64,000 bases of DNA from Juglans regia. Taxonomy: Eukaryota > Streptophyta > Magnoliopsida > Fagales > Juglandaceae. The notes below the pieces were generated by a model, which was not told the origin of the DNA, ran no database searches, and saw only the letters and a program-made list of their open reading frames with translations. The translations under genes and the position numbers were made by a program. Below, one piece after another: positions 5,089 to 58,911 of the stretch (position 1 is the stretch's first letter; each line of letters opens with the position of its first letter). The stretch spans positions 15,958,241-16,022,240 of the forward strand of contig NC_049902.1 of assembly GCF_001411555.2 (NCBI RefSeq). The letters run 5' to 3'.

Positions 5089-5312
5089 ACACTCCTTCAT
5101 CTTCTGATTTGGGGTTTTACACAAAATTCTGACCTTATTCTCTTATTTTCCTCATCATTCATGTACACACCCAAAACTCTAGCTACACCACATTTGAATT
5201 AAGAGCCTAACACACTACAATGGTGATAACCGAGAGTTGTTGGTTAGAATAGTGCAAACCGAGCCTCCTCTTCAAGATTTTTGACATACTATTTGTAAGC
5301 AACGAAAAGTTT

Positions 5313-10831: not shown

Positions 10832-13800
10832 TGTGACGCCCCCAAATTCCGCTTGGGATCGGATGGACATTTGAAGCGTCGAGACATGCAACACAAGGTT
10901 ACCTGCCCCCGTTCATGACATATAAGATGCAATATTCCTAACATGCATCTAGCATTATGCAATATTCGCAGCGGATAATTTTTTTTTCTTTAGAAATACT
11001 ATGCACCAAACCGAAATATCCCAAAGACTTAAAACATACTTCATACATAATGACATACTAAACAACTGAGATCACAACATTAGTCCAAAATGGTTGTGAT
11101 AAAAAGAGTGTTGGAGATTGAACTCCACAAATACAAGTAGTAACCTGAGGTAACTACTGTATTACCATCTACGTTGCACCATCGCTTAATCGATCGTTTC
11201 CAGATGGTCGATTCTCGATTCACCTTCAGATCCTGTAATAAGATCTACCATTCGGGGGTAATGGTAGTTGGGACTACTATAGTGAGATTTGATTACAAAT
11301 CTCAGCAAGTTAACAAGAAACTTCCACACAGGTTAATGATGCATGCATGGCAGTAAAAGCATGAATGCATAATCAAATCATAAGTAATCATAGCATAACT
11401 TGACATACAACATAACATAACTGGCATAACTTAAACTGAAACTGAAGCTTAGCATGAACGTGACTTGAAACATAACATGGATTTGAAACATAGCATGAAC
11501 GTGAACTTGGAACATAACATGGACTTGAAACATAGCATGAACGTGAACATGCATAATTTGAACTTGAACTTGAGCATGACATAACATAAATGTGAACTTG
11601 GAACATAACGTGAACGTGAACATAACATAACATGAACTTGAAACATATTCTTGTCTCATGGGATTACCATGATTGCGTGAACGTAAACTTGAACATAACA
11701 TAACGTGAAACATGACTTGAACTTGGAATCTTATTCAATAGACTTAATCATTAAAGTGACCATATGGGTGCTACACAGGTCCCCTTGAGCGTGTGTCCCT
11801 GCCGATTACCGCATCACATCACAGGTGTCTATACCAGTTGTGAGTGCGTTAATACGTACTCCACAGTTGTTGTGGCCCCATGACTTATCTGTTTGTGCCA
11901 CACTTGCTGTAGACACATGTAACATAATGTGTGGCACCATCGGCGTTAGTGCCTGGCGCGCTCCGGTGACCAGCTAATTAGGCCCCATTCGCAACCTGTT
12001 GACTGTACTTCGTCAACCCAGGGAATTTCACACCTATTTAGACACTCCAGCGTGAACAAAGGAGTTCCACTAGGATATTACCCCATCCTAGCGCTTAGGG
12101 TCGTGATTGACATGAATAACTTAACTGGCATACATGACATTTCGTAACGTGACGTAACATGAACGTGACATAAAAGACAGAAGTCCTGACGTAGCATAAC
12201 GTGACATGAACTAAGACGACAGACATGACATACCTCGAGACATAAATGTAACAGAGAACATTTCATAACATGGCATACATGTAACATGCAACATTTCGTA
12301 ACATGGCATACCATATAATAGACAACATTTCTTAACATGGCGTAACATGTGACAGTGAATATTACGTGACATGAAATACATGTAACAGATGGCATACTTA
12401 ACATGACATACTTGCAATGTATAGCAATACGTGACATAATATCTTGTGTAACAGATGAATAATTCATGACAGAATAAATTCTGTGTAACAGATAAATATG
12501 TAATGACTTGGCATGGCACATATGATAACATGCATACATACATTTAGTTCCCTTACTTATCACTCATACACATTAAACTGATAGTAAGTTAAAAGCTAAC
12601 TTACCTCGATCTTCGCGCTTCGAGACAAAACTCAAGTGCGATCACGAGAAACTGAAAGTAGTGATTTCTAAAAATTAGAACTTAATCACTAACAATTAGG
12701 AATATGGAGAAATATCAACTTCGAGTAAAATTACCATTTTACCCTCTACATGTGAGAAAATGACCATTTTACCCCTAACTTAAGGATTTTGCATCCTAAC
12801 TCCGAAAATCACCAAAATTTACATACCTTATGTAAATTTTGTCCTAAGCTCAAATATCAATTCAAAAAAATTTAAAACTAAACACAACCATTAAAACTCT
12901 ATAGGGCCGAAACTTACAAAGCTATTTCCTTTGATTTTGTTGTAATTCTTTCAAATTTCAAAACTCATGATTAAACCAAAATTTTTCCTCTACTACACTC
13001 ATAACATATTCCTAAGAATAATCATGTTTTGAATCATGAACAAAATTCATCAAAATCACTAAAACCATACTTGAACTTTTTGGTTTCTCTTCTAAGTTCA
13101 AAACAGATTTTTGTTTCTAACTTGTTTTGATCAACCTCTTGATCCATGACTTATAAAGAAGTGATCTTCAAACCAAAACGTCACATGGTTAAAAAAGGTG
13201 TCCTAAAACAGATCCAAGCTTCAAACTCAAGATCACATGGTTAAACATCACCCAAAACATAAATTTAGCCAAGAACATCATCACTTTGGCCTAACCAAAT
13301 ATCTCAATGCATAAAATTTCATATCTTCGAAACTAACATCAAATATCTTCAAAATAACATTCTAAAATGTATATAAGATGCTTAGGATCTTCTAATAAAA
13401 ATATCAAAGCCATTGGAATAAGATTAAACTATAAAAGATTTAAACTTTCTCAAAACAGAAACTGTTTTTCCTCTTCCAGTTTCTAAGTTTCTAGACCTAA
13501 GAAAATATTTCACCAAAACTTTTAATCATGCAACAAATCCTCAACCAATAATCATATACACATGTTAACAGTACTCCATAAAAATTTCGGACCAAGATCT
13601 ATTCATTAGCTTGGTCAAAAACTCCAAAATATAACACACTCTCCAGTTTATCGCCCAGAATGACCTTTCTGTGGTCTAAACAACTTCAGACCGATCACAT
13701 GATCCCCAAATGGAACGAATAAGGTATCCACCTAAACTAGACTCAAAAATAAAGAACTTTCATGAAGGAAAATTTGCGAGAAAACACTTACAAAAGCTTT

Positions 13801-19181: not shown

Positions 19182-19186
19182 GCTTA

Positions 19187-21772: not shown

Positions 21773-21872
21773 NNNNNNNNNNNNNNNNNNNNNNNNNNNN
21801 NNNNNNNNNNNNNNNNNNNNNNNNNNNNNNNNNNNNNNNNNNNNNNNNNNNNNNNNNNNNNNNNNNNNNNNN
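21773..21872. other. Assembly gap, 100 N
   Basis: Exactly 100 unknown bases, the usual size for a gap of unknown length. The sequence to its right is the sequence of 6575 onward again. Confidence 1.
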
Positions 21873-26129: not shown

Positions 26130-29100
26130 TGTGACGCCCCCAAATTCCGCTTGGGATCGGATGGACATTTGAAGCGTCGAGACATGCAACACAAGGTTAC
26201 CTGCCCCCGTTCATGACATATAAGATGCAATATTCCTAACATGCATCTAGCATTATGCAATATTCGCAGCGGATAATTTTTTTTTCTTTAGAAATACTAT
26301 GCACCAAACCGAAATATCCCAAAGACTTAAAACATACTTCATACATAATGACATACTAAACAACTGAGATCACAACATTAGTCCAAAATGGTTGTGATAA
26401 AAAGAGTGTTGGAGATTGAACTCCACAAATACAAGTAGTAACCTGAGGTAACTACTGTATTACCATCTACGTTGCACCATCGCTTAATCGATCGTTTCCA
26501 GATGGTCGATTCTCGATTCACCTTCAGATCCTGTAATAAGATCTACCATTCGGGGGTAATGGTAGTTGGGACTACTATAGTGAGATTTGATTACAAATCT
26601 CAGCAAGTTAACAAGAAACTTCCACACAGGTTAATGATGCATGCATGGCAGTAAAAGCATGAATGCATAATCAAATCATAAGTAATCATAGCATAACTTG
26701 ACATACAACATAACATAACTGGCATAACTTAAACTGAAACTGAAGCTTAGCATGAACGTGACTTGAAACATAACATGGATTTGAAACATAGCATGAACGT
26801 GAACTTGGAACATAACATGGACTTGAAACATAGCATGAACGTGAACATGCATAATTTGAACTTGAACTTGAGCATGACATAACATAAATGTGAACTTGGA
26901 ACATAACGTGAACGTGAACATAACATAACATGAACTTGAAACATATTCTTGTCTCATGGGATTACCATGATTCCGTGAACGTAAACTTGAACATAACATA
27001 ACGTGAAACATGACTTGAACTTGGAATCTTATTCAATAGACTTAATCATTAAAGTGACCATATGGGTGCTACACAGGTCCCCTTGAGCTGTGTGTCCCTG
27101 CCGATTACCGCATCACATCACAGGTGTCTATACCAGTTGTGAGTGCGTTAATACGTACTCCACAGTTGTTGTGGCCCCATGACTTATCTGTTTGTGCCAC
27201 ACTTGCTGTAGACACATGTAACATAATGTGTGGCACCATCGGCGTTAGTGCCTGGCGCGCTCCGGTGACCAGCTAATTAGGCCCCATTCGCAACCTGTTG
27301 ACTGTACTTCGTCAACCCAGGGAATTTCACACCTATTTAGACACTCCACGTGAACAAAGGAGTTCCACTAGGATATTACCCCATCCTAGCGCTTAGGGTC
27401 GTGATTGACATGAATAACTTAACTGGCATACATGACATTTCGTAACGTGACGTAACATGAACGTGACATAAAAGACAGAAGTCCTGACGTAACATAACGT
27501 GACATGAACTAAGACGACAGACATGACATACCTCGAGACATAAATGTAACAGAGAACATTTCATAACATGGCATATTTGTAACATGCAACATTTCGAACA
27601 TGGCATACCATATAATAGACAACATTTCTTAACATGACGTAACATGTGACAGTGAATATTACGTGACATGAAATACATGTAACAAATGGCATACTTAACA
27701 TGACATACTTGCAATGTATAACAATACGTGACATAATATCTTGTGTAACAGATGAATAATTCATGACAGAATAAATTCTATGTAACAGATAAATATGTAA
27801 TGACTTGGCATGGCACATATGATAACATGCATACATACATTTTAGTTCCCTTACTGATCACTTATACACATTAAGCTGATAGTAAGTTAAAAGTTAGCTT
27901 ACCTCGATCTTCGCGCTTCGAGACAAAACTCAAGTGCGATCACGAGAAACTGAAAGTAGTGATTTCTAAAAATTAGAACTTAATCACTAACAATTAGGAA
28001 TATGGAGAAATATCAACTTCGAGTAAAATTACCATTTTACCCTCTACATGTGAGAAAATGACCATTTTACCCCTAACTTAAGGATTTTGCATCCTAACTC
28101 CGAAAATCACCAAAATTTACATACCTTATGTAAATTTTGTCCTAAGCTCAAATATCAATTCAAAAAAATTTAAAACTAAACACAACCATTAAAACTCTAT
28201 AGGGCCGAAACTTACAAAGCTATTTCCTTTGATTTTGTTGTAATTCTTTCAAATTTCAAAACTCATGATTAAACCAAAATTTTTCCTCTACTACACTCAT
28301 AACATATTCCTAAGAATAATCATGTTTTGAATCATGAACAAAATTCATCAAAATCACTAAAACCATACTTGAACTTTTTGGTTTCTCTTCTAAGTTCAAA
28401 ACAGATTTTTGTTTCTAACTTGTTTTGATCAACCTCTTGATCCATGACTTATAAAGAAGTGATCTTCAAACCAAAACGTCACATGGTTAAAAAAGGTGTC
28501 CTAAAACAGATCCAAGCTTCAAACTCAAGATCACATGGTTAAACATCACCCAAAACATAAATTTAGCCAAGAACATCATCACTTTGGCCTAACCAAATAT
28601 CTCAATGCATAAAATTTCATATCTTCGAAACTAACATCAAATATCTTCAAAATAACATTCTAAAATGTATATAAGATGCTTAGGATCTTCTAATAAAAAT
28701 ATCAAAGCCATTGGAATAAGATTAAACTATAAAAGATTTAAACTTTCTCAAAACAGAAACTGTTTTTCCTCTTCCAGTTTCTAAGTTTCTAGACCTAAGA
28801 AAATATTTCACCAAAACTTTTAATCATGCAACAAATCCTCAACCAATAATCATATACACATGTTAACAGTACTCCATAAAAATTTCGGACCAAGATCTAT
28901 TCATTAGCTTGGTCAAAAACTCCAAAATATAACACACTCTCCAGTTTATCGCCCAGAATGACCTTTCTGTGGTCTAAACAACTTCAGACCGATCACATGA
29001 TCCCCAAATGGAACGAATAAGGTATCCACCTAAACTAGACTCAAAAATAAAGAACTTTCATGAAGGAAAATTTGCGAGAAAACACTTACAAAAGCTTTGA

Positions 29101-34479: not shown

Positions 34480-36341
34480 GCTTATGTAACAGCCCGCTAG
34501 AAATTCATTGAAGGAATTTCTATTGACTTTAGGAATCTCGTGAAAATCCCATAAGTTTTTACGAATCGACCTATTGCATAGGTTTTAGTCTGTCAACATA
34601 GTCAGTGTTATCACTCACTATGCTACTAGAAATATGAGTTTTATTTATTTGAGGTGGTTAGAAGTGTCAGAATGCATTATGGTCTACGCCATTACACTCA
34701 GTGGATTATTTAGGATTTTATGGCACAATATCCTATTTTCATAATTCCGGACGAAACGTCTGTTGGAAATTGTGAAATTATTTTTAGGGGCACTTCGAGG
34801 TTAAATTTCGGTAAAAGATTTTCACTAAAGGTTAATATGAATATTTAGGAATTTTTAGTACTAAGTTTATGATTCACTTTTTCGAAGTGAATAGTAACCT
34901 CGATAAGCGCACCAATTGCAGTGTTTCGAAATCACAGTGTGGAATGTCCAAATTGGATTAGAGAAGTTTTATTTGGACACTTGGCAAGATCTTAGCCACA
35001 CTTAGTGAATAATTTTAGACACTTGGCACCATAAGGAACGTTTGTTGGATTTGAAGGAATCAAGGTGTGAGATCATGTCGCTTAAGCAAAACTTTGTTTC
35101 ATCTGCTCAACCAAATTGTGCCAGATCAAAGAGGTTTTCAATCCTAGTGAAATTCTAAATGGTGGGAATCCAATCGAAAGCCCAAAAGCATGGTTGAAAT
35201 CGAAACCCTAAACGGTTTCCCCAAAACCCTAAAGTTGGCCTCTAAACATTCTCTAATCCGATTTCTAGCATTGTGTTTAATCACTTGATTAAATCACTTC
35301 CACATGCTATTAATCCTTCAAATTTGTGTTAGAACATCATTATCCAACCTTGTTAACCTTGAAAAATTGATTGGGCCAAGTGATATTGGATTTGGGCTTG
35401 ATAGCAACCCAAACCCTCTTTAAACCCCAAATTTTAGGCCCATTCGGTTTAGGCCCTTTAAGGCCCACGAATTTGGTCACCATAGGATTGCTTCATGGCT
35501 AAGTTTTGTACCCCCACTTGGCTGGCCAGATCTGTACAAGAAGAGCCTAGAAGGTTCTTGAAAGACATAGCTAAAGGGCCACCTCACTCATTCACTCTTA
35601 CACTCCACCTTAAGAAAAGATCTTGGTCTGATTTTTATGAGAAGAAAAGGCCAACACTCAACCATTCCTTCAGTCCTATCACTTTACATAGCTTGTGTAA
35701 GAAGCTCTTCAGTCCACTTCCCACGAAAAAGCAACTCTCCTTTACACTTTTCCTTCATAGAACACAAAAGACACTCTCGGACAGTTTTTCGTACCTCTTT
35801 TGAATGCCTGTTTCGAAGCTTTTGTAAGTGTTTCCTCGCAACGTTTCCTTCATGAAAGTTGTTTCTTTTGGAGTCTAGTTTACGTGGATATCTTATTTGT
35901 TCCATTTGGAGATCATTTGATTGGTAAAAAGTTGTTTAGACCCCAGAAAGGTCATTCTGGGCGATAAACTAGAGAGTGTGTTATATTTTGGAGTTTTTGA
36001 CCAAGCTAATGAATAGATCTTGGTCCGAAATTTTTATGGAGTACTGTTAACATGTGTATATGATTATTGGTTGAGGATTTGTTGCATGATTAAAAGTTTT
36101 GGTGAAATATTTTCTTAGGTCTAGAAACTTAGAAACTGGAAGAGGAAAAACAGTTTCTGTTTTGAGAAAGTTTAAATCTTTTATGGTTTAATCTTATTCC
36201 AATGGCTTTGATATTTTTATTGGAAGATCCTAAGCATCTTATATACATGTTAGAATGTTATTTTGAAGATATTTGATGTTAGTTTCGAACATATGAAATT
36301 TTATGGAAGGAGATATTCGGTTAGGCCAAAGTGATGATGTT

Positions 36342-36677
36342 TGTTGGAATATACAAACTCATATTGAAGCTTTGGAGTTGAAGTCAAAAGAAGCTAAACA
36401 GAAAAGTGAAGTCAGATTGCAAAATGAGATAATTCCAAATAATAGTGAAATTAAATCCAAATGCAAATGTGATAATTAGTTAGAATGTTAAGTGAATATC
36501 TTCTGTTTCTGTAAAGTGAAGTTAGTTAGTATACGTGTCTATAAATAGAAAGGTTGTAAAAGTATTATGCATGCAATTTCTGCAGAATAATAAATTCACA
36601 TTGAATTTTTGTTCTCAATCTTTAGTTTACATTTCAAGTTCTCTGTTCTTCTCAATCTTGAAGTTACAGATTTTACA
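36342..36677 (+). repeat. Copia 5' LTR
   Basis: 336 bp, TGTTGG...TTTACA, with a TATA box TCTATAAATAG at about 36539-36549 and AATAATAAATTC downstream as a possible polyadenylation context. Confidence 0.97.
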
Positions 36678-36688
36678 TGGTATCATCG
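36678..36688 (+). promoter_or_regulatory. Copia primer-binding site
   Basis: TGGTATCATCG directly follows the 5' LTR. Its first eight bases match the initiator tRNA-Met PBS consensus TGGTATCAGAGC; the remainder diverges. Confidence 0.8.
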
Positions 36689-36755
36689 TCCATAAACATT
36701 CCGCTGCCCTCTTGATTTTTCTTTTACAATTCTTGCTTTTGTTTCTTATGCTTCT

Positions 36756-39700
36756 ATGGCAGAATCCTCTAATAATAATTTCTCTGAAAATTCTTCTTTT
36801 CCTTTGGGGAATCCATCTGATGATTCCTCAAGTCACTACTACTTGCATCCATCTGATAATCCTGGAGTCCTTCTTGTTTCTGAAATATTTTCTGGTGATA
36901 ACTATGTGGCTTGGAGTCGGTCCATCACAATTGCTCTCACAGTCAAGAACAAAGTTGCCTTCATCGATGGGAGTTTGCCTCAGCCTAATTCTACTAACTC
37001 TCGACTTAAGATTGCTTGGTTGCGAGCCAACAATCTTGTGCTTTCTTGGCTAATGAATTCCATTGCAAAGGATATTCGAGGTAGTCTTCTTTATTTCAAT
37101 AGTGCTGCTGACATCTGGAATGAGTTAAAGATTCGATACCTGCGTAGTGATGGTCCAAGAGTATTTGCCTTAGAGAAATCCTTAAGTTCTATCTCTCAAG
37201 GCTCAAATTCAGTCACTGAGTATTTTAGTGCTTTCAAAGCACTATGGGATGAACACATTAGTTATCGTCCCCTTCCAACTTGTAATTGTGGATTTTTGGA
37301 AAAATGTACCTGTGCAGTATTGAAGAATCTTGCTGATCAACAAGAAGCTGACTATATCATGAAATTCTTGATTGGTCTGAATGATTCTTTCTCAGCAATT
37401 CGAAGCCAGCTATTGCTTCTTTCTCCATTACCATCAATGGGAAAAGTTTTCTCTTTATTGATACAAGAAGAGAGCCAACGTTCCTTAACTAATGCAGTGC
37501 ATATTCCCCTTGATTCTCATGCTATGGCTGCTGCACAACCATCTACACAAACATATTCAAATGCTGTTAAGTTCAGCAAAGTCAAAGGCAAATCAGATGT
37601 CATTTGTTCCCATTGTGGATTCTCTGGACATCTTGTAGATAAATGTTTTCAGCTTATAGGTTATCCACCAGGTTGGAAAGGGCCTCGAGGAAAGAGAATT
37701 AATTCCACACGATTGTCCAATGCAAACATGGCATCTTCTATGGAGCAAAACTTAAATAACCCAACAATGTTTTTTTCTCAAGAGCAAATACAGAATTTGA
37801 TCACTCTTGCCAATAGTCTATCCACTTCTTCTACCAATCCTAATCCTGCAGTTAACACTGCCTCTACATCAGGTAATAACTCCATCTTTTGTTTAGCTAA
37901 TGCCTCCTTAAATCACATCTCTTCTTGGATATTAGATACTGGAGCAACAGATCACATGATCTGTTCTCCTCATCTGTTCACGTCCATAAAAATCCCAAAC
38001 AAACCCTCTTCAGTCCATTTACCAAATGGTCATTCAGTTCCCATCATTTTTACTGGTACTGTTAAAATCTCACCTGATTTAACTTTACACAATGCCCTTT
38101 ATGTTCCTTCTTTTCATGTCAATCTCATTTCTGCTTCTAGGTTGACTAAAGAAAATTCTGTTGCCTTGTTTTTCTTTCAATCTAAATGTGTATTGCAGGA
38201 CCTCAGCAAATGGAGGATGATTGGGCTTGCTGAAGTCAGAAATGGCCTGTATCACCTCATCAATCTTTCTGCTGCTACACAAAAGGAAATTCCTGGTTCA
38301 AACAGCTCTTTCTTGGCTAACACATCTACCATTAGTCCTAACATATGGCATTTTCGGTTGGGACATTTATCTTCTGCCAAACTTAAACTCATTAGTTCTA
38401 TTGATCCTTCTGTAAAAACATCTCACAAACATGTTTGTGAGATCTGCCCTCTAGCAAAACAAAAGAAGCTGTCTTTTCCTGTATCACAAAGCAATTCAAA
38501 TAAAGCTTTTCAGTTAGTACATTGTGATATTTGGGGTCCTTTTTCCACTATCTCACATTCTGGCCATAAATTCTTTCTTACTATTGTGGATGATCATACA
38601 CGTTTTACTTGGCTTTTTCTTATGAAAGCAAAATCAGAAACTCGAGTTTTACTAGCCAACTTCATTACATATGTTCAAACTCAATTTGATTCTCAAATAC
38701 AAACTTTTAGAACAGACAATGGCCAAGAATTCAATATGCCTTCCTTTTAGCAAGAAAATGGTATAATACATCAGCTATCATGTGTAGAAACTCCTGAGCA
38801 AAATGGTAGAGTTGAGAGAAAACATCAGCATTTGCTAAATGTTGCTAGAGCCCTTCTTTTTCAATCTAAACTGCCTTTAACATACTGGACTGAGTGTGTA
38901 TTGACAGCAACACATCTCATAAATCGAACCCCCTCATCTGTGCTAGATAATAACACACCATATGCTCTCCTTTTTCACAAATCTCCAGCCTATAACTATC
39001 TTAAAGCCTTTGGCTGTTTGTGTTTTGCCAGCACAATCCATACCAGTCGAAGTAAGTTTCATCTAAGAGCCTCAAAATGCTTATTTCTTGGGTATCCACC
39101 AAATATCAAGGGATACAAAGTGCTTGATCTCCTTACCCTTAAAATCTTTGTTTCCAGAAATGTCATTTTTCATGAGAACATTTTTCCTTCTCTTCCAAAC
39201 TCTACTCACACACCTTTTGTTTTTCCTGATTTTCCCCCAATACATGACTTCACAGTACCCATTAATCCACCAAATCCACATTCTGCAATTCCAGAACCTC
39301 CTCCTTCACAGAATCAATTGCTTTCTGAAGTACCAGAATCTATAACTTCACAAAATTTCTCTTCTGCTATTCCAACATCAGAACCTATTACTTCACAGAT
39401 TAATCTTGAAAATGTAAACCTTCGAAGATCTGAAAGAATAAGGAATCCTCCTTCATATTTGCAGCATTTTCATTGTGGTAATATGGCTCACTCTACTTCA
39501 ACATCTCAAAAATCTCCTAGCTACTGCATTCCTTCTTCTGGTAAGCCATACCCTCTTGCTCATTTTCTTTCAACACATAAATTGTCACCTAGACATGCAG
39601 CATTCACTTCTGCTGTATCATCTATTTTTGAGCCTAAGACATTCAAACAAGCCAATTCTTCTCCACATTGGCAAGCAGCCATGTTAAATGAGATCAAAGC

Positions 39701-41312
39701 TCTTGAATTAAATAAAACATGGGAACTTGCAATATTACCTCCAAATAAGGTTGCCATTGGATGTAAATGGGTATATCGTGTTAAGTTCAAAGCTGATGGC
39801 ACAATTGATCGATACAAGGCTAGATTAGTAGCAAAAGGCTACACCCAACAAGAAGGCCTTGATTATTTTGACACATTCTCACCTGTAGCTAAGATGACAA
39901 CAGTGAGAACATTGTTATCCATTGCTGCCATTAAGAATTGGCATTTACACCAACTTGATGTAAACAATGCTTTTCTTCATGGAGATTTAAATGAAGAGGT
40001 GTATATGCAACTACCACCAGGGTATTCTTCACCAACTGATCCGAGAGTTTGCAAACTCAAAAAGAGCCTATATGGTCTAAAGCAGGCCTCAAGACAATGG
40101 TTTTCCAAATTGTCATCTTCTCTACTTCAATTTGGTTTTATTCAAGGGAAGTCTGACTCCTCTCTATTCATCAAGCATAATTCAAACAGTTTTATAGCAC
40201 TCTTGATTTATGTTGATGATGTGATTCTTGCTTCTAATAATCTTGCTGATATAGTCAATGTCAAAAGGTTCTTACACGACTCTTTCACTATAAAAGACTT
40301 GGGAGAACTAAAGTACTTCTTGGGGATAGAAGTGGCTCGATCAACCAAAGGCATAACTTTATGCCAACGAAAATATGCCTTAGATATCTTGCAAGATAGT
40401 GGTTTTTCAGGTTGTAAACCTGTGGCATTTCCTATGGAGTCTACATTAAAACTGAGTGCAAATGACTCATCTCCACCTTTGACAGATCCTGCACAATACA
40501 GAAGATTAGTGGGCAGGCTATTGTACCTCACTATAACTAGACCTGACTTATCCTACTCAGTCCAAGCACTAAGCCAGTTCATGGCTAATCCTAGTAGTAA
40601 TCATCTTCACGCTGCTGAAAGAGTCCTCAGGTATATCAAAGCAACACCAGGCCAAGGTATATTTCTGTCTGCACATTCCCCTCTTCATCTAAAAGCCTAC
40701 TCAGATAGTGATTGGGGTGGTTGTATTGACACTAGAAAGAGTATCACTGGATTCACAGTGTTTCTTGGTGACTCTCTTATATCATGGAAATCAAAGAAAC
40801 AGCCAACAGTTAGTCGATCCTCAGCTGAGTCTGAATACAGAGCTCTAGCCTCTACCACATGTGAACTACAATGGTTGATCTACTTGCTAGCTGACTTAAA
40901 GGTCCCTCATCCACAGGCTATTCTGCTTTATACAGACAGCAAACCAGCTTCTGACATTGCATCAAACCCTGTCCAACATGAAAGAACAAAGCACATCCAA
41001 CTCGACTGCCATTTGGTCCGAGAAAAATTGCAAGAAGGTTTGATCAAGATCATTCACATCCCATCCAAACATCAGCTGGCAGATATTCTAACTAAACCAC
41101 TTGGTTCCCTCAATTTCCATCATCTGATCCGCAAGATGGGAATGATCAATATACATTCTCATCTTGAGGGGGGGTGTTGGAATATACAAACTCATATTGA
41201 AGCTTTGGAGTTGAAGTCAAAAGAAGCTAAACAGAAAAGTGAAGTCAGATTGCAAAATGAGATAATTCCAAATAATAGTGAAATTAAATCCAAATGCAAA
41301 TGTGATAATTAG
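36756..41312 (+). pseudogene. Copia gag-pol polyprotein with one premature stop
   Basis: A single frame of 1,519 codons is broken only by TAG at 38748-38750 (codon 665). Visible domains are: a copia-type Gag N-terminus (DNPGVLLVSEIFSGDNYVAW, residues 35-53); a CCHC knuckle C284-C287-H292-C297; protease DTGA (394-397); an HHCC integrase zinc site H532, H537, C561, C564; and an integrase core with D591 and D654. The third acidic residue lies beyond the stop, in the PEQNGRVERKH segment. RT carries YVDD at 40209-40220, and RNase H has SDSDWGG (about 40699) and YTDSKP. The stop replaces a codon in the conserved FYQ-type position between the second Asp and the final Glu, so integrase, RT and RNase H would be lost without readthrough. 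The frame runs 138 bp into the 3' LTR before stopping. The start ATG at 36756 is the first in this frame after the PBS. Confidence 0.95.
41166..41174 (+). promoter_or_regulatory. Copia polypurine tract
   Basis: GAGGGGGGG sits immediately before the 3' LTR TGTTGG, the expected plus-strand primer position. Confidence 0.9.
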
Positions 41313-41509
41313 TTAGAATGTTAAGTGAATATCTTCTGTTTCTGTAAAGTGAAGTTAGTTAGTATACGTGTCTATAAATAGAAAGGTTGTAAAAGTATTA
41401 TGCATGCAATTCTGCAGAATAATAAATTCACATTGAATTTTTGTTCTCAATCTTTAGTTTACATTTCAAGTTCTCTGTTCTTCTCAATCTTGAAGTTACA
41501 GATTTTACA
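41175..41509 (+). repeat. Copia 3' LTR
   Basis: 335 bp, differing from the 5' LTR by one T deletion as far as can be read. It contains the last 45 codons and the stop of the polyprotein frame. Confidence 0.97.
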
Positions 41510-42185
41510 ATGTTCTTGGCTAAATTTATGTTTTGGTTGATGTTTACCCATGTGATCTTGACTTTGAAGCTTGGATCTGTTTTAGGACACCTTTTTGAAC
41601 CATGTGATGTTTTGGTTTGAAGATCACTTCTTTATAAGTCATGGATCAAGAGGTTGATCAAAACAAGTTAGAAACAAAATTCTGTTTTGAACTTAGAAGA
41701 GAAACCAAAAAGTTCAAGTATGGTTTTAGTGATTTTGATGACTTTTGTTCATGATTCAAAACATGATTATTCTTAAGAATATGTTATGAGTGTAGTAGAA
41801 GAAAAATTTTGGTTTAATCATGAGTTTTGAGATTTGAAAGAATTACAACAAAAAGCAAAGGAAATAGCCTTTGTAAGTTTCGGCCATATAGAGTTTTGAT
41901 GGTTGTGTTTAGTTTTAAATTTTTATGAATTGATATTTGAGTTTAGGACAAAATTTACATAAGGTATGTAAATTTTGGTGATTTTTGAAGTTATGATGCA
42001 AAATCCTTAAGTTAGGGGTAAAATGGTCATTTTCCCACATGTAGAGGGTAAAATGGTAATTTTACTCTAAGTTGATATTTTTCCATATTCCTAATTGTTA
42101 GTGATTAAGTTCTAATTTTTAGAAATCACTACTTTCAGTTTCCCGTTATCGCACTTGAGTTTTGTCTCGAAGCACGAAGATCGAG

Positions 42186-43624
42186 GTAAGTTAGCTTTTA
42201 ACTTACTATCAATTTAATGTGTATGTGTGATAAATAAGGGAACTAAATTGTATGTATGCATGTTATCATATGTGCCATGCCAAGTCATTACATATTTATC
42301 TGTTACACAGAATTTATTCTGTCATGAATTATTCATCTGTTACACAAGATATTTTGTCATGTATTGCTATACATGCTATACATTGCAAGTATGTCATGTT
42401 AAGTTAAGTATGCCATCTATTACATGTATTTCTTGTCATGTAATATTCATTGTCACATGTTACGCCACGTTAAGAAATGTTGTCTGTTATATGGTATGTC
42501 ATGTTACGAAATGTTGCATGTTACATGTATGACATGTTATGAAATGTTCTCTGTTACATTTATGTCTCGAAGTATGTCATGTCTGTCGTCCTACGTTCAT
42601 GTCACGTTATGTTATGTCAAGATTTCTGTCTTTTATGTCACGTTCATGTTACGTCACGTTACGAAATGTCATGTCTGCCAGTTAAGTCATTCATGTCAAT
42701 CACGACCCTAAGCGCTAGGATGGGGTAATATCCTAGTGGAACTCCTTTGTTCACGCTGGAGTGTCTAAATAGGTGTGAAATTCCCTGGGTTGACGAAGTA
42801 CAGTCAACAGGTTGCGAATGGGGCCTAATTAGCTGGTCACCGGAGCGCGCCAGGCACTAACGCCGATGGTGCCACACATTATGTTATGTGTGTCCACAGC
42901 AAGTGTGGCACAAACAGATAAGTCATGGGGCCACAACAACTGTGGAGCATGAAGTATGGGGCCACAACAACTGTGGAGCATACACTACGTGAGACATAGC
43001 AATTGTGACACGTAGAATACGTGGGGCCACAACAACTGTGGAGTACGTCTTAACGCACTCACAGCTGGTATAGAAACCTGTGATGTGATGCGGTGATCGG
43101 CAGGGACACACGGCTCAAGGGGACCTGTGTAGCACCCATATGGTCATGTTAATGATTCTATTGAATAAGATTCCAAGTTCAAGTCATGTTTCACGTTATG
43201 TTATATTCAAGTTTACGTTCACGCAATCATGGTAATCCCATGAGACAAGAATATGTTCCAAGTTCATGTTATGTTATGTTCACGTTTACGTTATGTTCCA
43301 AGTTCACATTTATGTTATGTCATGCTCAAGTTCAAGTTCAAATTATGCATGTTCACGTTCATGTTATGTTTCAAGTCCATGTTATGTTTCAAGTCACGTT
43401 CATGCTAAGCTTCAGTTTCAGTTTAAGTTATGCCAGTTATGTTATGTTGTATGTCAAGTTATGCTATGATTACTTACGATTTGATTATGCATTCATGCTT
43501 TTACTGCCATGCATGCATCATTAACCTGTGTGGAAGTTTCCTGTTAACTTGCTGAGATTTGTAATCAAATCTCACTGTGGTAGTCCCAACTACCATTCCC
43601 CCCGAATGGTAGATTTTGTTACAG
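42186..43624 (+). other. Predicted intron of forward LTR B
   Basis: The donor is ATCGAG/GTAAGT at 42186 and the acceptor is TTGTTACAG/G ending at 43624. The donor context CGAG/GTAAG recurs in LTR I (minus, 62423) and as CACGAG/GTAAG in LTR S (minus, 3114). The intron holds all the conserved hairpins. The following exon reads, in phase 1, SEGESGIDQLEMVD then stop (43669-43671), and the reverse copies give SEGESRIDHLETID. The conserved length and frame suggest selection before the copies separated. Splicing is inferred. Confidence 0.45.
42926..43045 (+). repeat. Local expansion of a hairpin unit in LTR B
   Basis: GGGGCCACAACAACTGTGGA occurs three times (from about 42927, 42959 and 43022), with a diverged fourth unit near 43000. 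Each unit folds as CCACA/TGTGG. The reverse LTR B copies have only one such unit (11867-11883 and 27165-27181). Confidence 0.85.
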
Positions 43625-44899
43625 GATCTGAAGGAGAATCGGGAATCGACCAACTGGAAATGGTCGACTAAGCGACGATGCGATGTAGGTGTTAATACAG
43701 TAGTTACCTCAGATTACTACTTGTATTTGTAGAGTTCAATCTCCATCACTCTTTTGATCACAACCATATGGATTAATATTGTGATCTCAGTTGTTTAGTA
43801 TGTCATTATGTATGAAGTATGTTTTAAGTATTTGGGATATTTCGGTTTGGTGCATAGTATTGCTAAAAAGAAAAATTATCCGCTGCGAATATTGCATAAT
43901 GCTAGATGCATGTTAGGAATATTGCATCTTATATGTCATGAACGGGGGCAGGTAACCTTGTGTTGCATGTCTCGACGCTTCAAATGTCCGTCCGATCCCA
44001 AGCTGAATTTGCGGGCGTCACAGCTTAAGCCTCAGAATTGGCTTAGAACCGTGTGGCTTGTATGGATGGGAATGAGGATTTAGTGTGAGCTAGGGTGCAT
44101 GAAGATAGTGACGGGTGTATTGTCTAGGATTGGGATGCATGATTCCATCGGTCGGAATCATACGTCGGAATGTGGTTAGTAAGAAGAGTAAGACGAAGGT
44201 CTTAGTGTCTTAATCCTAAGGTGAATCATGGGTTCACTTCAGTAGATGGGCACTCGAGGTAAGACCTTGAGTTTGGAAGAGATAATGACCGTAAGTAGAT
44301 CCTGAAGGTTTTAGCATAGTAAAGGGCACATAAGTGCAAGGGATAGTTCCAAGTGTTCCAAGTGAAGCATAGTTCCATTTCTAGTTTAGGTCGCTTATGC
44401 ATTAGATAGAGAATGATGTTAAGGTTATGTGTATGCATGTACGTTTCCATCTGACACGCACATGAATGGACTGCATGATATGAAAGTAGCATGGAGTCCA
44501 GGTAAGTATTGCATTCATACTCTTCTAGAGTTTTCTAAAATATATGAAAGAAAATGAAACGCTTTTCCTTTATGAAATGACACGAAAGATGTTTTACGAA
44601 AACGTGCTATGTCTAAGTGTTCAAAGGTATACGTATGTATGGCCATCCTTGGCAATCCCTTTTTACGCAACCAAAGTATTAATCGTACGCATGTGAATGG
44701 ATGACGATACGCTGTATCTATTGTCTGTATTTTCTAAGAAAAGAAAATGTTGAAGCTTTAACTGATGCTTTAAACGACGCGAAGATGGTCCCTATGAACT
44801 GATGTTGAAATGCCCCTGTGAACTGATGCTTTACGGATGCCACGAAAGATGATGTTTAAGCCCATGCTTTTAAATGACATTTTCCATGAATGAACCTTT

Positions 44900-48928: not shown

Positions 48929-49131
48929 AGTTCATGTATTTTTGTTTTACTACATGAATGGAATAAAGGGATTTTTTAACCTAAGAACTCTAAAAGTTGA
49001 GTGGTTTAAGATCATGTGATGCCATAGAAGCCCACACACACTCAAGAACACGAAATAGGGTTTTTGGACACTCTTTCTAATGTAGTATATTCGGATTTAC
49101 AGCTTGCTAGTATTTCTTTATGCGGATTTTT

Positions 49132-50380
49132 GTAAGTATTCACTCAACTTACTCTTGGTTAATATTTGTTTATGATTGTGTAAATCCTTTCATTGTTCTG
49201 TTTGTTTTGTTTGCTATTTCTTGTTTGTTGGTTTGAATATGCTTGTATGATCTTGGAATATGAATATTACATGAATGGTATGATTTGGTTTTAAGATGAA
49301 AATGGCAAGAATGTTCGATGTTTCGGATCTTGTGGTTGATTGGTGTTATTTGATGATTTGGCTATACCATGTCTTAGAAGTTTCGGATCTTGGCCAAATA
49401 CCATGATTTTATGTTTCGTTTTGTTATGCTTTGATTCCTAAGCATGTTTAAGTGATGAATCTTCATGTTTTGCATCCATATGTTTTAGCCATGGCCCTTT
49501 TTCATGGGTTCATGTATATGTTTTGATATCTCATATGGTTTATGTTATCATGCTATCAAATGAACATGTTATGATTAGTTATTTTATGCACGGCATTTCA
49601 TATGTCATACGTCAATTGTAAGTAAGCATGTTGTAAGTCTCATGTCACATGCATTTGGGGGAAAAGTGTTTTCAAATAAAAGTTTTTCAAATAAAAGTGT
49701 TTTCAAAGAAAGTGTTTTCAAAGAAAAGGATTTAAAAGTTTTATCATGACCCCAAGTGCTAGGGCGGGGGAATGTCCTAGTGGAACTCCTCTGTCCACTC
49801 TGGAGTGCTTAAGAATAGAGTGGTAACCCCTGGGTCGACAAAGTATCTTCAACGAGCCTTGAATGGATTATTTTCAAAGAATGTCGGAGCAAGGAAGCGC
49901 CTAATGCTAGTGGGTGCATAAGGCATGTAACCCGACAAAGTAAGGCCGATTTAGTATGAATCTTTGTTTATGACGTATTCATTATGGTGCACGGACTGTG
50001 GATGGTGCAGTAACTAGCAAGAGCAAGCGGTGTTAAGGGAAATCGTGTTGTGTCCACCCTCTGAATAAGAATAAGAGCTTATGTGATAAGGATCGCTCGA
50101 TACAAATCTTGTGATATGTTCCGATAAGGCAAGTTCTGATTAAGATCACGTGAATAAGAAAAGTTTAGAAGTTTTTATGAAAAGTTAAGTTTTGTTACAA
50201 GAGAAATTCTGGTTAAGTGCATAAGTCAAGTACATATCCATGCACGCATTTCATGATATACCTCTTGTATGCTTGTGTTAACTGTGGTGTGTTGTGTCAC
50301 TACTTGTTGAGATTTCTTGAAATCTTATTAAGGTAGTTTCCACTACCATTCTCCAACCTAAATGGTAGAAGTTGTGACAG
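49132..50380 (+). other. Predicted intron of LTR A
   Basis: The donor TTTTT/GTAAGTATTCACTCAACTTACTC is almost the same as in LTR a (5313). The acceptor is TTGTGACAG/G. H3 here has one C-A mismatch (GTCGA against TCAAC), a likely decay step from the paired form in LTR a. Confidence 0.45.
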
Positions 50381-51958: not shown

Positions 51959-51970
51959 GCTCTGATACCA
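51959..51970 (-). promoter_or_regulatory. Gypsy primer-binding site, tRNA-Met type
   Basis: GCTCTGATACCA on the plus strand is TGGTATCAGAGC on the minus strand, the perfect 12-base complement of the plant initiator tRNA-Met 3' end. It lies 9 bp from the start of the reverse LTR at 51980 and fixes both the orientation and the identity of the 5' LTR. Confidence 0.92.
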
Positions 51971-52522: not shown

Positions 52523-53989
52523 CTGTCACAACTTATATCATTTCGAGTAGGGGAATGATAGTGAAAATTACATTAGTGAGATTTCAAAAAATCTCAGTAA
52601 GTAAACAAATAATATGCAATGGATATCGTAAGCATATGTAAGCAAACTCAAAATGAATGCATGGACATGAAACTTTACTTATGCATTTGACTTTTTGAAA
52701 ATACCGTGTACATCATGGCTTTAATAACAATTTTCTTTCATAAAACATTTTTCTATCATTTCATACTTGTTCATTAATTAATATACTTGTGAGCTCGGGT
52801 TCTTGTTCATATAACAAAGCATAGCATGACTTGAAGCTCAAGGCCTTTCTTTGGCTTTAACTTATAAGTAGATACCTCACGGTGCCCCTATGCACCGTGT
52901 GTTCCCCACTAGTTACCGCATTAACCATTGGCCCACTTTGACTAAGGTGACTACGTCTTATTTCAATCATTCATATTACAGCAGTTCGATTTTCGCCTTC
53001 ACCGTAGGGCACCCACTAGCTTTAGGCACAACCCCGCTCCGGTATCCTTTTCTTTTAGGAACCATTCGAGGTCCACCGATTGTACTTTATCGATGCTGGG
53101 GTTTCCACTCCATTTTACACACTCCTGAGTGGACAGACGAGTTCCACTAGGGCATTTTCCCATCTTAGACTTTGGGGTCCTGACAAAATTTTAAAAGACT
53201 CGTTTTCTTTTTGAAAGATTTCACAAACTCAATGCATGTGATATCAACTATGAAACTTTAAACTTTCATGGGACGCATGCAATGCCGAAACTTAATCATC
53301 ACCATATAACAAACAATCATGCATATTCATGTACATTTCGCGTTGCGGCTTGAAAATATTAGAACATGTGACCATGTTCTATTTCATAAATTCTAAGGCA
53401 TTCAATCAACAAACAAAATGCGAACATTCACAACTTCACATGTATCATGCAATGGATGAGACAATAAACACTAGCAGCATGCATGAGAATTATTTTTATT
53501 GCTTTAAAACTTTCATCACATCATACTAACCCTTCATCTATGGTCATGGCCGAAACCTATTATTCTTGAATATACATTACATTAACTTTCGTGATCTTAG
53601 AATTTTCTAATGTGCTTAACAAAACTTTATCAATGAGCCTCCATGTGTAGCCGAAATATATGAGTGAGCATGCTTAGGAAAAACAAGCATTTCTTTGAGT
53701 TTAATCCCTTTAAAAGATTAGGTAAGGCGACAATCTTCACGAACATGTTAGGAATCAGGCAAAAATCTGATACCCTTAATGTGTCCTTCCACTCCATATT
53801 CATGATAGGTTGATCTGTTAAGAATCAACCTATGAACCATTTCAATCATAGGTTCATCATTCACACAAGGATCCGATTATATCACAAAGAAGAACATCAT
53901 CATATCAAGCATAATCATACAACCAAACAACAAGTAAGTCCACATTGCATATACATAAAATATCAAGTACAAGTTAGAAGTTTACTTAC
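52523..53989 (-). other. Predicted intron of the gypsy 5' LTR
   Basis: On the minus strand the donor is TTTTTGTAAGTAAAC and the acceptor TTGTGACAG. It has the same order of hairpins as LTRs a, A and B. H3 keeps the 8-base loop around AAAGTACA, although its stem sequence is different. Confidence 0.45.
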
Positions 53990-56398: not shown

Positions 56399-58911
56399 TG
56401 TGAGACCCCAAAAATTAGTGTGTTTTATTTTATTTTATTTTATTTTTATTATTTTCTTTAAGAAATTCTACCCATTTGGTTGTTGTGGGCTTTCTTTATT
56501 GTTGTTGTAAGTGCTTTGGGCCAGCATTTTTTTTTTTTAGACTTGTGCGTGAGGATTTCAAGCCCAGCCCGATGCCCGTGTGCTTGAAGCCCAGCCCCTT
56601 CCCCACTTGAAGCGATGCCGTTTTGACACTGTGGAATTGTTTTGCTTCCTTCCCCTAAACAATGCCGTTTTGGGCTTAAGGGTAAAATCCTAATATTTTC
56701 TTATTTTTCCCCTGGTGCCGCACCCTTCCTTTTCTTTTTTTCCTTTCTTTTTTACAATGCCGTCCCCGTTGCCAGCCAGCCTTCGCCATGCTTACATCAA
56801 GCAAGGGCCTCCATCGTCACCTACCCCACCTTCTTTTCCCCAATTCGACCACCCCTTTTCTATGGTCTTCTCCGACTCCCTTTGCTCCCGAGCTCACATT
56901 GGCCATGGTGAAGCCTAGCCACTACCGCGAGCCTCTCATTACACGCCATGCATGTGTTGCTCACGAAGCCCGTGCCACCCTACCCCCACAATCACAGTCG
57001 TGGTTACGTTTGCCAAGACCCACCCCATGGCCTACAAATAGGCCAAGCCCCTCGTCCCTCAAACCACCCCTCAATTGGTTTCCTCCTCTCTCAAAACCTA
57101 GTTCTAGCTTTTCCCCACCCTCGGATCTACATCCTGAAACCTTTAGGGTTAATTTTGCCCTAACGCCAGTTGTCTTCTGGTGGCCGCGCAACCACCCCTA
57201 TGTACCCCATTTCCCTTTCTCGTCGTCCTCTTTCCTGGGTTCCACCTAACTCGTGAGCTAAAGCTCACTGTAGACGTTGCTCTGCCACACCCCGCTGCAA
57301 CAATCCTCACCTTCACCCACTAGCACATCAGATCTGCCATCTTTGTTAAAAGAAACCCATTTTAGCCCCTCTCTTCTATTAGTTTCACCATTGCCACTGC
57401 CTACTGCTGCTGCTACTGCTCTGTCGTGCTCCACCCCTCTAGACGCCATGACAATAAGCCTTAATGCCTCTTGCCTTGTGTTTCATTTTTATCGGATGAC
57501 CAATTTTTAATCTAATCAACTTTTTCCATCTATCCAGGGACACGCGCACTCGTTCAATTGCGGGACCCCGTAAACCATCACACGCAATCATCCAGAATAT
57601 TTGCGTTCCGTGCTGTAAGTAACTCTCCAACGCAACCCTTGGAATTCTAACATCAAGTTTATCGCTAGCTTTGTTGCAGTTTGGTTATGTTGAGAAGGGC
57701 CTTGGGCCAGGGGAAGTGTTGGGAATAATTGATTGTGTTGTTATCGGATTTTGGGCTGAGGACCAGATGGAGGATGGGAAATGCGTATAGTTGGGGTTTG
57801 TGAATCAATGGTATGATGACTTGTGTGTTGTTGTGTGGTTGACTATTTGTGATATGCCATGTCATCCAATAAACTGCCTGTCATGCATCTTCATATTCAT
57901 CGTTATGAAATCTATCCTAAATTATTCATCTATGCTATGCTATATGGCATAATCTGAAACTGGTTTTGGTGTCATTAGAAAAATAATATATTTTTGTGTG
58001 GGTGCGTGCATGTCACGACCCCTAGTCGAGATGGATTATTATCTCAGTGGAGCTCCTCTGGTCACTCGGGAGCGTGTAAAACTGAGAGACATCCCTGGGG
58101 CTGTCGCCAAGCGACAACAGGCTTGACCAAGACAGTAACGCTCTTGGTACGACTATGGAGCCCCTCCGCTGGCAGGGGCTAGAGGATGCTTGGTCACGTT
58201 ATGCACTGAGTGCGAAGTTGGGCATCGCTCATAACAATGTCACACGCACGGTCGTTACCCGTGGTGTGACGAAGGGAGCTAGGGCATGCAGGTGACATCG
58301 AGGGGAAACCTTTGTGTACACTGTAATAAATGGTTGTGTTTTGGGTACAAAAGGGGTTTTGGCATGAGTGGTTATAAGAAATGCATTTTGGGGATTGTTG
58401 TAAAAATAAACATTTTTTAGGTTATTGCTTCCATGGATGTTGTGCTTCGTTTATGGTATAATTTCATGCTTGAAACTTAGTTGTCGCTCTGCTGATTTAT
58501 TTACTGAAATTGCAAAATATCATTGCGGTATTCCTACCTGCAGTTCCATTTCATGGAATCGTAGACTTTGATACAAAGGAGTGGTATGAGCAAGAGGGAC
58601 TAGCCCCACCTGAGGAGTGATGGCAGGACTTCTCGCGTTATTTGTTGTTGGACCTTTGTTTTCCTCTTCTTTATTTCAGCCGAATGACTGTATTAACTTC
58701 TTGGATGACTTTATTTTGGGTTGTATTGCTGTTAAACTTTCTGGTACTTAGTTTTTTATTGCCTTATATTTTTTCGCTGTGATATTTTTGCTGTACACAT
58801 TTTGCATGTTTGCACACACTTGCACAATGCGATGGGGTGTATGATCCATGTGGTCATCATCTCGGTGTCACGACTCCCACCAAATCACACGTGAGGGTCG
58901 AGGGTGCCACA
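56399..58911 (+). mobile_element. Solo LTR H, 2.51 kb, TSD AAAAC
   Basis: It begins TGTGAGACCCCAAA and ends GGGTGCCACA, with AAAAC on both sides (56394-56398 and 58912-58916). A TTTTA-rich run (56421-56455) is followed by a GC-rich leader. The donor is GCT/GTAAGTAAC (57615) and the acceptor is CTACCTGCAG (58543). The hairpin domain at 58014-58300 includes TGTCGC/GCGACA (58102-58116), ACCAAGA/TCTTGGT and AGCCCCT/AGGGGCT. The phase-1 exon reads PFHGIVDFDTKEWYEQEGLAPPEE then stop (58544-58620). The box TTTTTCGCTGT is about 137 bp from the end. Long GC-rich ORFs at 56642-57510 are low-complexity leader sequence. Confidence 0.92.
57615..58543 (+). other. Predicted intron of LTR H
   Basis: H1 here is GAGAT/ATCTC with an 8-base loop, in place of CTAGGAT/ATCCTAG in LTR B. 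H2 is GCTCC/GGAGC in place of ACTCC/GGAGT. The change of both partners while position and loop length are kept is the strongest single case of covariation in the window. Confidence 0.45.

What the first reader, a model, noticed from the sequence alone, without database searches (positions are those of the whole stretch)
42186..43624. Candidate structured RNA domain with covarying stems conserved across long LTR families
In LTRs a, A, B, the gypsy 5' LTR and H, the same ordered hairpins occur. H1: CTAGGAT/ATCCTAG in B, CTAGGGC/GTCCTAG in A, GAGAT/ATCTC in H, each with an 8-base loop. H2: ACTCC/GGAGT in A and B, GCTCC/GGAGC in H. H3: GTTGAC/GTCAAC (B), GTCGA/TCGAC (a), CGAT/ATCG (gypsy 5' LTR), TGTCGC/GCGACA (H), with an AAGTAC core kept in the loop in the first three. 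Both sides of the stems change together, which points to selection on RNA folding and not on DNA sequence. I know of no described RNA family with this pattern.
Basis: partly seen in the sequence, partly recalled or inferred. Interest (0 to 1): 0.88.

Follow-up and report, generated by a model that had tools for sequence, protein, structure and literature searches.

The report
Folded RNA domain in walnut retrotransposons
The long terminal repeats of several families of jumping genes in what is probably the walnut genome share a stretch of about 320 bases whose paired sides keep changing together, the mark of an RNA that must fold, and no catalogued RNA family matched the copies tested.

Summary
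Seven places in the window carry the domain (one is an assembly duplicate). It runs about 320 nt, not 110; the most distant H-type loci compared align there and hardly beyond. On 94 non-redundant copies the core stems show 17 two-sided pair-keeping changes against 5.7 expected on the same tree (maximum 11 in 100 simulations). A covariance model trained without that lineage scores its copies 20 bits above one with slid pairs. Single copies do not fold unusually well, and no single pair is significant. In the few complete LTRs the domain lies 1.2 kb after a TATA box and 1.0 kb before the primer site. Likely role: cis-acting signal of the element's RNA, inferred. Other plants untested.

The parts
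42700..43141 (+). structured domain, copy B (end approximate; longer than other copies through tandem hairpin repeats at 42931-43041)
42715..42736 (+).
   Evidence: covariation
42741..42762 (+).
   Evidence: undecided by covariation
42750..42779 (+).
42789..42808 (+).
42853..42873 (+). P5 in B: 42853-42857 with 42869-42873, loop motif shared with other families
43108..43130 (+). P8 in B: purine-rich loop closed by 43108-43113 with 43124-43130 (one bulged base)
   Evidence: family-level covariation
34485..44022 (+). LTR B, a solo LTR of 4,370 nt (TG...CA, target duplication GCTTA) split by a copia element at 36342-41509
58013..58325 (+). structured domain, copy H (divergent lineage; end approximate): P1 58028-58032/58041-58045, S1 58052-58056/58069-58073, S2 58061-58068/58083-58090 (one mismatch), P3 58102-58107/58111-58116, P4 58126-58132/58142-58148, P5 58160-58165/58174-58179, P6a 58185-58189/58222-58226, P8 58290-58293/58308-58311 (poorly formed in this copy)
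5928..6245 (+). structured domain, copy a (end approximate)
49744..50062 (+). structured domain, copy g5 (the gypsy LTR at 49.1-50.4 kb; end approximate)
52865..53183 (-). structured domain, copy x (end approximate); primer-binding-site-like 12-mer at 51959-51970 on the same strand, 1.2 kb downstream of the domain's start
11760..12106 (-). structured domain, copy A (end approximate)
27058..27404 (-). copy A2, duplicate of A (99.8% repeat across an N gap); not counted as independent

Best explanation
Shown: a domain of about 320 nt in the LTRs of several families of gypsy-type retrotransposons of one genome, probably walnut, has helices P1, S2 and P3 (tested across families) and P5, P6a and P8 (tested in the H lineage) that were kept by compensating changes while their letters drifted; S1, P4 and P6b are undecided. 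Shown for the few loci with a complete LTR: it lies downstream of a TATA box and upstream of the primer-binding site, in the same orientation. Inferred: it is part of the R/U5 leader of the genomic RNA and works in cis, as a recognition site that marks the element's own full-length RNA for Gag binding, packaging or reverse transcription, the role that folded leaders have in Ty1, Ty3 and retroviruses. No call shows that the domain is transcribed, which protein binds it, or at which stage it acts.
For: Homology confined to the domain: the far H-type loci L132 and L134 align from -8 to +368, L132 and L135 from -8 to +223, L134 and L135 from -13 to +219, L132 and L133 from -50 to +363 (matches over 200 nt). 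RNAalifold z -4.2 (0-121) and -6.5 (120-230); four flanking stretches give no structure, but also no conserved alignment. Tree-based test on 94 copies: the observed number of two-sided changes is reached in 0 (P1), 1 (S2), 3 (P3) of 100 simulations. H lineage, 21 rows: P5 0, P6a 0, P8 1 of 200. Pairs slid by 1-3 columns lose it. Model trained on a, g5, x, B only: 13 H-type loci (two of them, L064 and L072, score alike) score 20.3 bits more on average with the true pairs than with slid pairs (minimum 6.4); 38 of 39 chosen loci score more. LTR anatomy: TATA at -1213 to -1225 in L126, L128-L131 and L137; LTR start (TG) near -2455, -2498 and -2507 in L126, L131, L137; LTR end followed by the primer 12-mer at +1003, +1051, +1036 in L048, L051, L061. 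The folded 5' end carries tRNA annealing, dimerization, cyclization and packaging sequences in Ty1, Ty3 and HIV-1 (PMC11381356, passages; PMC4974528, passages).
Against: Single copies hardly fold better than shuffles (80-nt windows mean z -0.53 inside, -0.25 outside). No single pair passes the tree-based pairwise test: best E about 0.8, and the four best pairs are not stem pairs. In the unbiased 5-row scan only S2 (p 0.033) and P1 (p 0.007 at rank three) stand out; P3 and S1 do not (p 0.32, 0.79). Over 120-330 the consensus energy is low (z -4.1) but two-sided pairs are as in shuffles (7 against 6.8). S1: 0 two-sided changes. In the H lineage P1, S1, S2, P3 are not individually significant (41, 56, 18, 35 of 200), P4 and P6b show none. 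Fraction of paired cells beats the null clearly for S2 and P3 (2 and 0 of 100), not for P1 and S1 (12 each). G-U over A-C as a sign of sense-strand RNA is 93:29 in S2 cells but 122:98 as events over the four helices. The copies were picked by sequence patterns, which fix some positions. P4-P8 were first found by eye. The place in the transcript rests on a TATA box, not on transcripts. The Ty1 pseudoknot was not shown to act in packaging (PMC4974528).
Confidence: 0.5

Rival explanations
1. The domain is a nuclear export or RNA-stability element of the full-length RNA.
For: Same fold evidence. A review says that the mouse MusD element exports its RNA through a folded element with pseudoknot and kissing loops, and that a plant pararetrovirus uses a highly structured 5' leader that recruits the plant export complex (PMC12786077, section 2.2 read). 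The domain sits 1.0 kb from the primer-binding site, where priming and dimer signals usually lie (recalled).
Against: The same section states that RNA export of plant LTR retrotransposons has not been studied directly; no host factor is known here; nothing in the sequence favours export over packaging.
Confidence: 0.22
2. It is the folded 3' part of a long R region that presents or regulates polyadenylation and the first strand transfer.
For: In 4 of 6 H-type loci with long context AATAAA lies at +310 to +317, just after P8 (L009, L047 which is the window's own H, L063, L065); L064, which has a deletion inside the domain, has it at +225; rows L145 and L147 show it too.
Against: 49 of 60 loci with long context have no AATAAA between +200 and +700; R would be about 1.5 kb long; poly(A) sites not mapped.
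Confidence: 0.1
3. It steers translation of the long leader (internal entry or ribosome shunt).
For: Leader of more than 2 kb before the coding region in families with complete LTRs (inferred); a large fold would hinder scanning.
Against: It lies about 1 kb upstream of the primer-binding site, hence far from any gag start; no shared open frame across it in the six copies translated.
Confidence: 0.1
4. The conservation is of DNA (promoter, enhancer or insertion relic) and the stems are by-products.
For: Short blocks (TCANGACCC, AGTGG) are invariant in the window's copies without an assigned pairing partner; the other strand folds about as well; event-based G-U bias is weak; single pairs are not significant.
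Against: Two-sided changes exceed a tree-based null in two sets; slid pairs lose it; true pairs predict a held-out lineage better.
Confidence: 0.06

Closest known systems
Ty1 5' leader with its pseudoknot, and the Ty3 5' leader
   Same: Folded non-coding RNA in the leader of an LTR retrotransposon; in Ty1 a pseudoknot needed for efficient reverse transcription and bound by the Gag C-terminal region (PMC4974528 passages); Ty3 dimer hairpin (PMC11381356 passages).
   Different: Here the domain lies in mid-LTR, about 1.2 kb after the TATA box and 1.0 kb before the primer-binding site; the candidate pseudoknot is local, whereas Ty1's joins R to a stretch downstream of the primer-binding site; no sequence relation was tested; evidence here is comparative only.
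Structured 5' leader of the plant pararetrovirus CaMV
   Same: Plant reverse-transcribing element with a highly structured leader that recruits export factors (PMC12786077 section 2.2).
   Different: Virus leader, function reported; no sequence comparison made here.
MusD transport element (MTE)
   Different: Animal element with reported export role; here function untested.
Retrozymes (hammerhead ribozymes in plant LTRs)
   Same: Structured RNA tied to LTRs of plant retrotransposons (PMC4918200, search listing and abstract start only).
   Different: No hammerhead or other Rfam match; these LTRs belong to gypsy-type elements with a tRNA primer site.
Conserved LTR modules found by hidden Markov models
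   Same: That work links conservation in long R regions to stem-loops (PMC3601003 passages).
   Different: Its chromovirus model was trained mainly on zebrafish LTRs; no plant chromovirus LTR and no covariation test in the passages read.

Membership tests
Structured RNA (any cis-acting RNA) | two-sided changes above phylogenetic expectation at helix level | tested here: met
   94 rows, 17 vs 5.7, max 11 of 100; 21 rows, 16 vs 3.3, max 10 of 200
Structured RNA (any cis-acting RNA) | individually significant covarying base pairs | tested here: not met
   best pair E about 0.8 and not in a stem; best stem pair (P3) E about 4
Any Rfam 15 family | match at gathering score in the window, or E up to 5 for copies B and H | tested here: not met
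   0 matches
H-type pseudoknot (S1 with S2) | both interleaved stems conserved by compensation | tested here: inconclusive
   S2 supported (1 of 100). S1 pairs in 90% of cells with no two-sided change, but three of its five 5' letters were fixed by the patterns; in 12 loci found by a pattern outside S1, 9 pair fully, with little variation
Retrozyme | hammerhead core in the LTR | tested here: not met
   no Rfam match in the window
Ty3/gypsy chromovirus as host element | initiator-tRNA primer-binding site next to the LTR end | tested here: met
   L048 (1 mismatch), L051, L061 of 60 loci with 1.5 kb context; L009 has a 12-mer with 1 mismatch at +1160 and L039 a chance one inside the domain; the 12-mer is recalled as the primer site
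Ty3/gypsy chromovirus as host element | integrase C-terminal part with chromodomain | tested here: inconclusive
   reading frame 15867-16328 beside LTR A has 1,080 hits; the 120 listed bear PF24626, several also PF00385; one element only
Retroviral-type packaging signal | binds Gag and directs RNA into particles | not testable with these tools
   needs binding and packaging assays
RNA export element (MTE/CTE type) | raises nuclear export of unspliced RNA | not testable with these tools
   needs reporter assays

The most novel reading that the evidence does not exclude
A large, uncatalogued RNA family: a pseudoknotted domain of about 320 nt kept in the leaders of a clade of plant gypsy elements through near-complete turnover of the rest of the LTR, present in well over a thousand copies in one genome, and serving as a shared address by which one element's proteins can take up the RNA of other families and of solo LTRs.
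Probability: 0.3. Interest if true: 0.82.

Novelty: new variant of a known kind. Interest (0 to 1): 0.66.

Why it matters
Plant LTR retrotransposons fill much of many plant genomes, yet a recent review states that export of their RNA has not been studied directly (PMC12786077), and my searches turned up no conserved folded cis-element of their genomic RNA. A covarying domain with a clear place in the LTR makes the question of how plant elements select, export or prime their RNA directly testable, and gives a structure-based marker for LTRs whose sequence has diverged beyond recognition. With 1,670 exact matches to a core pattern and 671 matches with up to one mismatch to an H-type pattern (the two sets may overlap) one genome holds ample material.

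Tried and rejected
Thermodynamic stability of single copies: not informative. Pairwise covariation with a tree-based null: no significant pair. Relatives in viral contigs and bacterial genomes: three stretches, none confirmed, one and one; the five stretches read are unrelated coding-like sequence by eye, so breadth outside this genome is untested. A translated frame across the H domain found no protein relative. Alternative hairpin GTGG/YCAC in place of S2: the YCAC side changes together with S2's 3' side (GGTCACTC/GAGTGAC, GGTTACTC/GAGTAAC) while GTGG stays in 11 of the 12 loci that were found by a pattern not holding it (rows), so S2 is preferred. A TATA-like site at about -87 as a start just before the domain: TATAAA or TATATA occurs in 42 of 90 copies in an AT-rich stretch; not adopted. 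A GTAAGT site upstream as an intron start: its position differs between families; left open. P5 and P8 by motif anchors over 92 copies caught only 36 and 57; own pairing beat all 2,000 permutations for both, but the P8 anchor mis-registered part of the rows. P4 by best-hairpin search: at least 6 of 7 pairs in 79% of 71 copies, 46% of letter shuffles. A further search meant to collect copies by a pattern outside S1 did not complete; S1 was looked at in 17 rows at hand instead (where w_x was mis-anchored; its S1 pairs 4 of 5).

Literature: ten searches, nine on LTR RNA structure, plant elements or walnut and one on MusD, in open-licence PubMed Central text; I judged by listings and abstract starts, passages of PMC3601003, PMC4974528 and PMC11381356, and passages plus one section of PMC12786077. 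None described this domain; subscription journals are not covered.

Full report
What is there. Seven stretches of the window carry the same motif: a 5925-6045 (+), A 11992-12108 (-), A2 27291-27406 (-), B 42698-42814 (+), g5 49741-49862 (+), x 53070-53188 (-), H 58011-58125 (+). A2 is not independent: 6575-21043 recurs at 21873-36341 with 99.8% identity directly after a 100-N gap. A and B are copies of one family (95% over 1.4 kb), a and g5 of a second (80%), x a third (72-73% to a and g5), H a far relative. With each lineage left out of the profile, the others still find it: H E 9.9e-11, x 1.4e-38, A 1.6e-26, a 1.2e-28, g5 1.3e-32; no further place in the window reaches E 1.

Size. Against 300 column shuffles the consensus energy is low from 0 to 121 (z -4.2; two-sided pairs 8 against 4.4, p 0.05), from 120 to 230 (z -6.5; 6 against 1.2, p 0.02) and only weakly from 230 to 340 (z -1.4, p 0.10; two-sided pairs 7 against 2.6, p 0.04). 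Taken over 120 to 330 the energy is low (z -4.1) but two-sided pairs are as in shuffles (7 against 6.8). At -240, -120, +340 and +460 there is no structure, but there the copies no longer align. The far H-type loci L132 and L134 align by blastn from -8 to +368, L132 and L135 from -8 to +223, L134 and L135 from -13 to +219, L132 and L133 from -50 to +363, whereas closer relatives align over most of the LTR (matches over 200 nt). I therefore put the domain at about 320 nt.

Host and genome. Proteins encoded next to LTR A are closest to Juglans, and five contig lengths of the window's assembly (C1, C4, C8, C10, C16) equal those of Juglans regia contigs listed there, so the window is most likely from walnut. 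The core pattern has 870 + 800 exact matches in 571 Mb, the reversed control 2 + 2. A pattern for other families has 58 + 37, control 0. An H-type pattern with up to one mismatch has 330 + 341, control 0.

Structure of the core. S2 ranks first in an unbiased scan of the 5-row alignment (p 0.033), P1 third (p 0.007 for that rank); P3 and S1 rank low (p 0.32, 0.79; P3 of H is misaligned there). On the 5 distinct rows, 11 of the 27 pairs of P1, S1, S2 and P3 have a two-sided change against 5.2 in shuffles (1 of 500 as high), and 1 to 3 when slid by one to three columns; further pair types, 18 against 15.8, do not stand out (70 of 500).

Larger alignment. From 119 loci of the genome (L006-L125 less L047, which is the window's own H) and 6 window copies I kept 94 below 93% identity over the first 145 nt. 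A pairwise G-test with a tree-based null gives no significant pair: the best has E about 0.8 and the four best are not stem pairs; the best stem pair, in P3, has E about 4. At helix level I counted by parsimony the branches on which both sides change and pairing is kept, against simulations with independent columns on the same tree with the same number of changes per column: P1 8 against 1.8 (0 of 100), S2 5 against 1.8 (1 of 100), P3 4 against 1.3 (3 of 100), S1 0 against 0.9 (100 of 100); total 17 against 5.7, maximum 11. The fraction of paired cells beats the null for S2 (2 of 100) and P3 (0 of 100), not clearly for P1 and S1 (12 of 100 each). The search patterns bias this set: that fixes the last base of P1 and three of the five bases of S1's 5' strand, that also part of S2's, so S1 could hardly show two-sided change. 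In 12 H-type loci found by a pattern outside S1, 9 pair fully there, with little variation. S1 stays undecided. Typical states of P1 are CTAGGAT/ATCCTAG and CCGAGAT/ATCTCGG; own halves pair better than in any of 2,000 permutations among 92 copies.

H lineage and downstream helices. I aligned 23 H-type copies (11 of the 14 at hand, window copy included, plus the 12) and dropped two near-identical rows, leaving 21. Two-sided changes: P5 4 against 0.5 (0 of 200), P6a 3 against 0.2 (0 of 200), P8 4 against 0.6 (1 of 200); P1 1, S1 1, S2 1, P3 2 (41, 56, 18, 35 of 200); P4 and P6b 0. Total 16 against 3.3, maximum 10; slid pairs give 1 to 6. Paired cells beat the null for P8 (0 of 200), S1 and P6a (3 each), P1 (5), P3 (8), less so for P5 (18), P6b (27), P4 (30) and S2 (33). 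P5 reads GTCC/GGAC, GCCC/GGGC, GCCTC/GAGGC in this lineage and GTGCC/GGTGC, GCGCC/GGTGC, GGCAC/GTGCC in the window's other families, around a related loop. P8 reads ATGGTC/GGCCAT, ATGATC/GATCAT, ACAGTC/GACTGT here, CACAGT/ACTGTG elsewhere, around a GGGGA-type loop. P4-P8 were found by eye first and tested afterwards.

Prediction of a lineage not used in training. R1 (structure), R3 (the same helices slid by two columns) and R2 (sequence only) were built from a, g5, x, B alone. On 39 hand-chosen loci of the 120 (the 13 I classed as H-type, of which L064 and L072 score alike, and 26 others) R1 exceeds R3 in 38, by 14.9 bits on average; for the 13 H-type by 20.3 (minimum 6.4), for the 26 others by 12.2. 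R1 minus R2 is 23.2 bits for the H-type and 18.8 for the others, R3 minus R2 only 2.9 and 6.5. In the window H scores 59.0 with R1 and 39.2 with R2, though the two E-values are alike (6.4e-12, 3.4e-11).

Against the reading. Single sequences hardly fold better than their shuffles except B (z -2.1) and H (-1.65); sliding windows differ little inside and outside. The reverse strand's consensus fold is as good. G-U against A-C is 93 to 29 cells in S2 but 34 to 26 as events out of Watson-Crick pairs, and 122 to 98 over the four core helices. So the strand rests on LTR orientation.

Place in the element. LTR B is a solo LTR of 4,370 nt with TG...CA ends and target duplication GCTTA, split by a copia insertion with its own duplication ATGTT; the domain starts 3,047 nt from its start and 1,322 nt before its end. 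In related loci with long context the LTR starts with TG about 2.5 kb before the domain (L126, L131, L137), a TATA box followed by a pyrimidine-rich stretch lies at -1213 to -1225 (L126, L128-L131, L137), and the LTR ends about 1.0 kb after the domain's start, followed by the primer-binding 12-mer in L048 (one mismatch), L051 and L061. Of 60 loci with 1.5 kb context five have a 12-mer with at most one mismatch downstream: these three, L009 at +1160, and a chance one inside the domain of L039. The transcript start is thus inferred about 1.2 kb upstream, and the domain lies in R or U5; strict TATA boxes were not found in LTR B. In part of the H lineage AATAAA follows the domain directly (4 of 6 loci with long context), which would put it at the end of R there.

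How it probably works. A non-coding domain that keeps its fold while its letters turn over, in the leader of an RNA that is message, genome and template, is most simply a cis-acting recognition element. Gag-directed packaging or reverse transcription is my first choice because folded 5' ends carry these functions in Ty1, Ty3 and HIV-1 (PMC11381356 and PMC4974528, passages). Export is the main rival (MusD element and the structured leader of a plant pararetrovirus in PMC12786077, section 2.2). Nothing computed here separates them.

Known or new. Rfam 15 has no match in the window at gathering scores and none up to E 5 for B and H. Nine literature searches on the subject found no such domain (listed in Tried and rejected). 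One relevant paper ties conservation of long R regions to stem-loops, in other clades (PMC3601003, passages). From memory, and tested by no call, LTRs of some other plant families carry a similar start motif; that is a lead only. I call it a new variant of a known kind: the kind is the folded leader of LTR retroelements, the variant a large mid-LTR domain of a plant clade.

Noticed in passing
6575-21043 and 21873-36341, N gap 21773-21872: 99.8% identical direct repeat of 14.5 kb directly after a gap of exactly 100 N; probably an assembly duplication or unmerged haplotype.
   Followed up: partly
36342-41509: Copia element (336-bp LTRs 99.7% identical, RVT_2 and gag domains, target duplication ATGTT) nested in solo LTR B; its coding region is in two reading frames.
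   Followed up: partly
42931-43041, 11861-11875, 27160-27174: Copies A and B carry a small hairpin (CCACAACAACTGTGG) inside the domain, three times in B and once in A.
   Followed up: partly
43.98-44.02 kb and LTR ends of L126-L131: By eye, a second short inverted pair (GACGC...GCGTC) closes the last 50 nt of the LTR in several families, like the U5 stem of retroviruses.
   Followed up: no
1720-1750: TGTCACAACCCC followed by a GTCC/GGAC hairpin with 8-nt loop resembles the start of the domain but is not found by the profile.
   Followed up: partly
C1, C2 of G000 (list): Several H-type matches lie in same-strand pairs about 6.4 kb apart, as expected of complete young elements with two LTRs.
   Followed up: no
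5310-5319, 49129-49138, 53983-53992 (minus): A TTTGTAAGTA stretch, like a splice donor, recurs 0.6-0.8 kb upstream of the domain in a, g5 and x.
   Followed up: no
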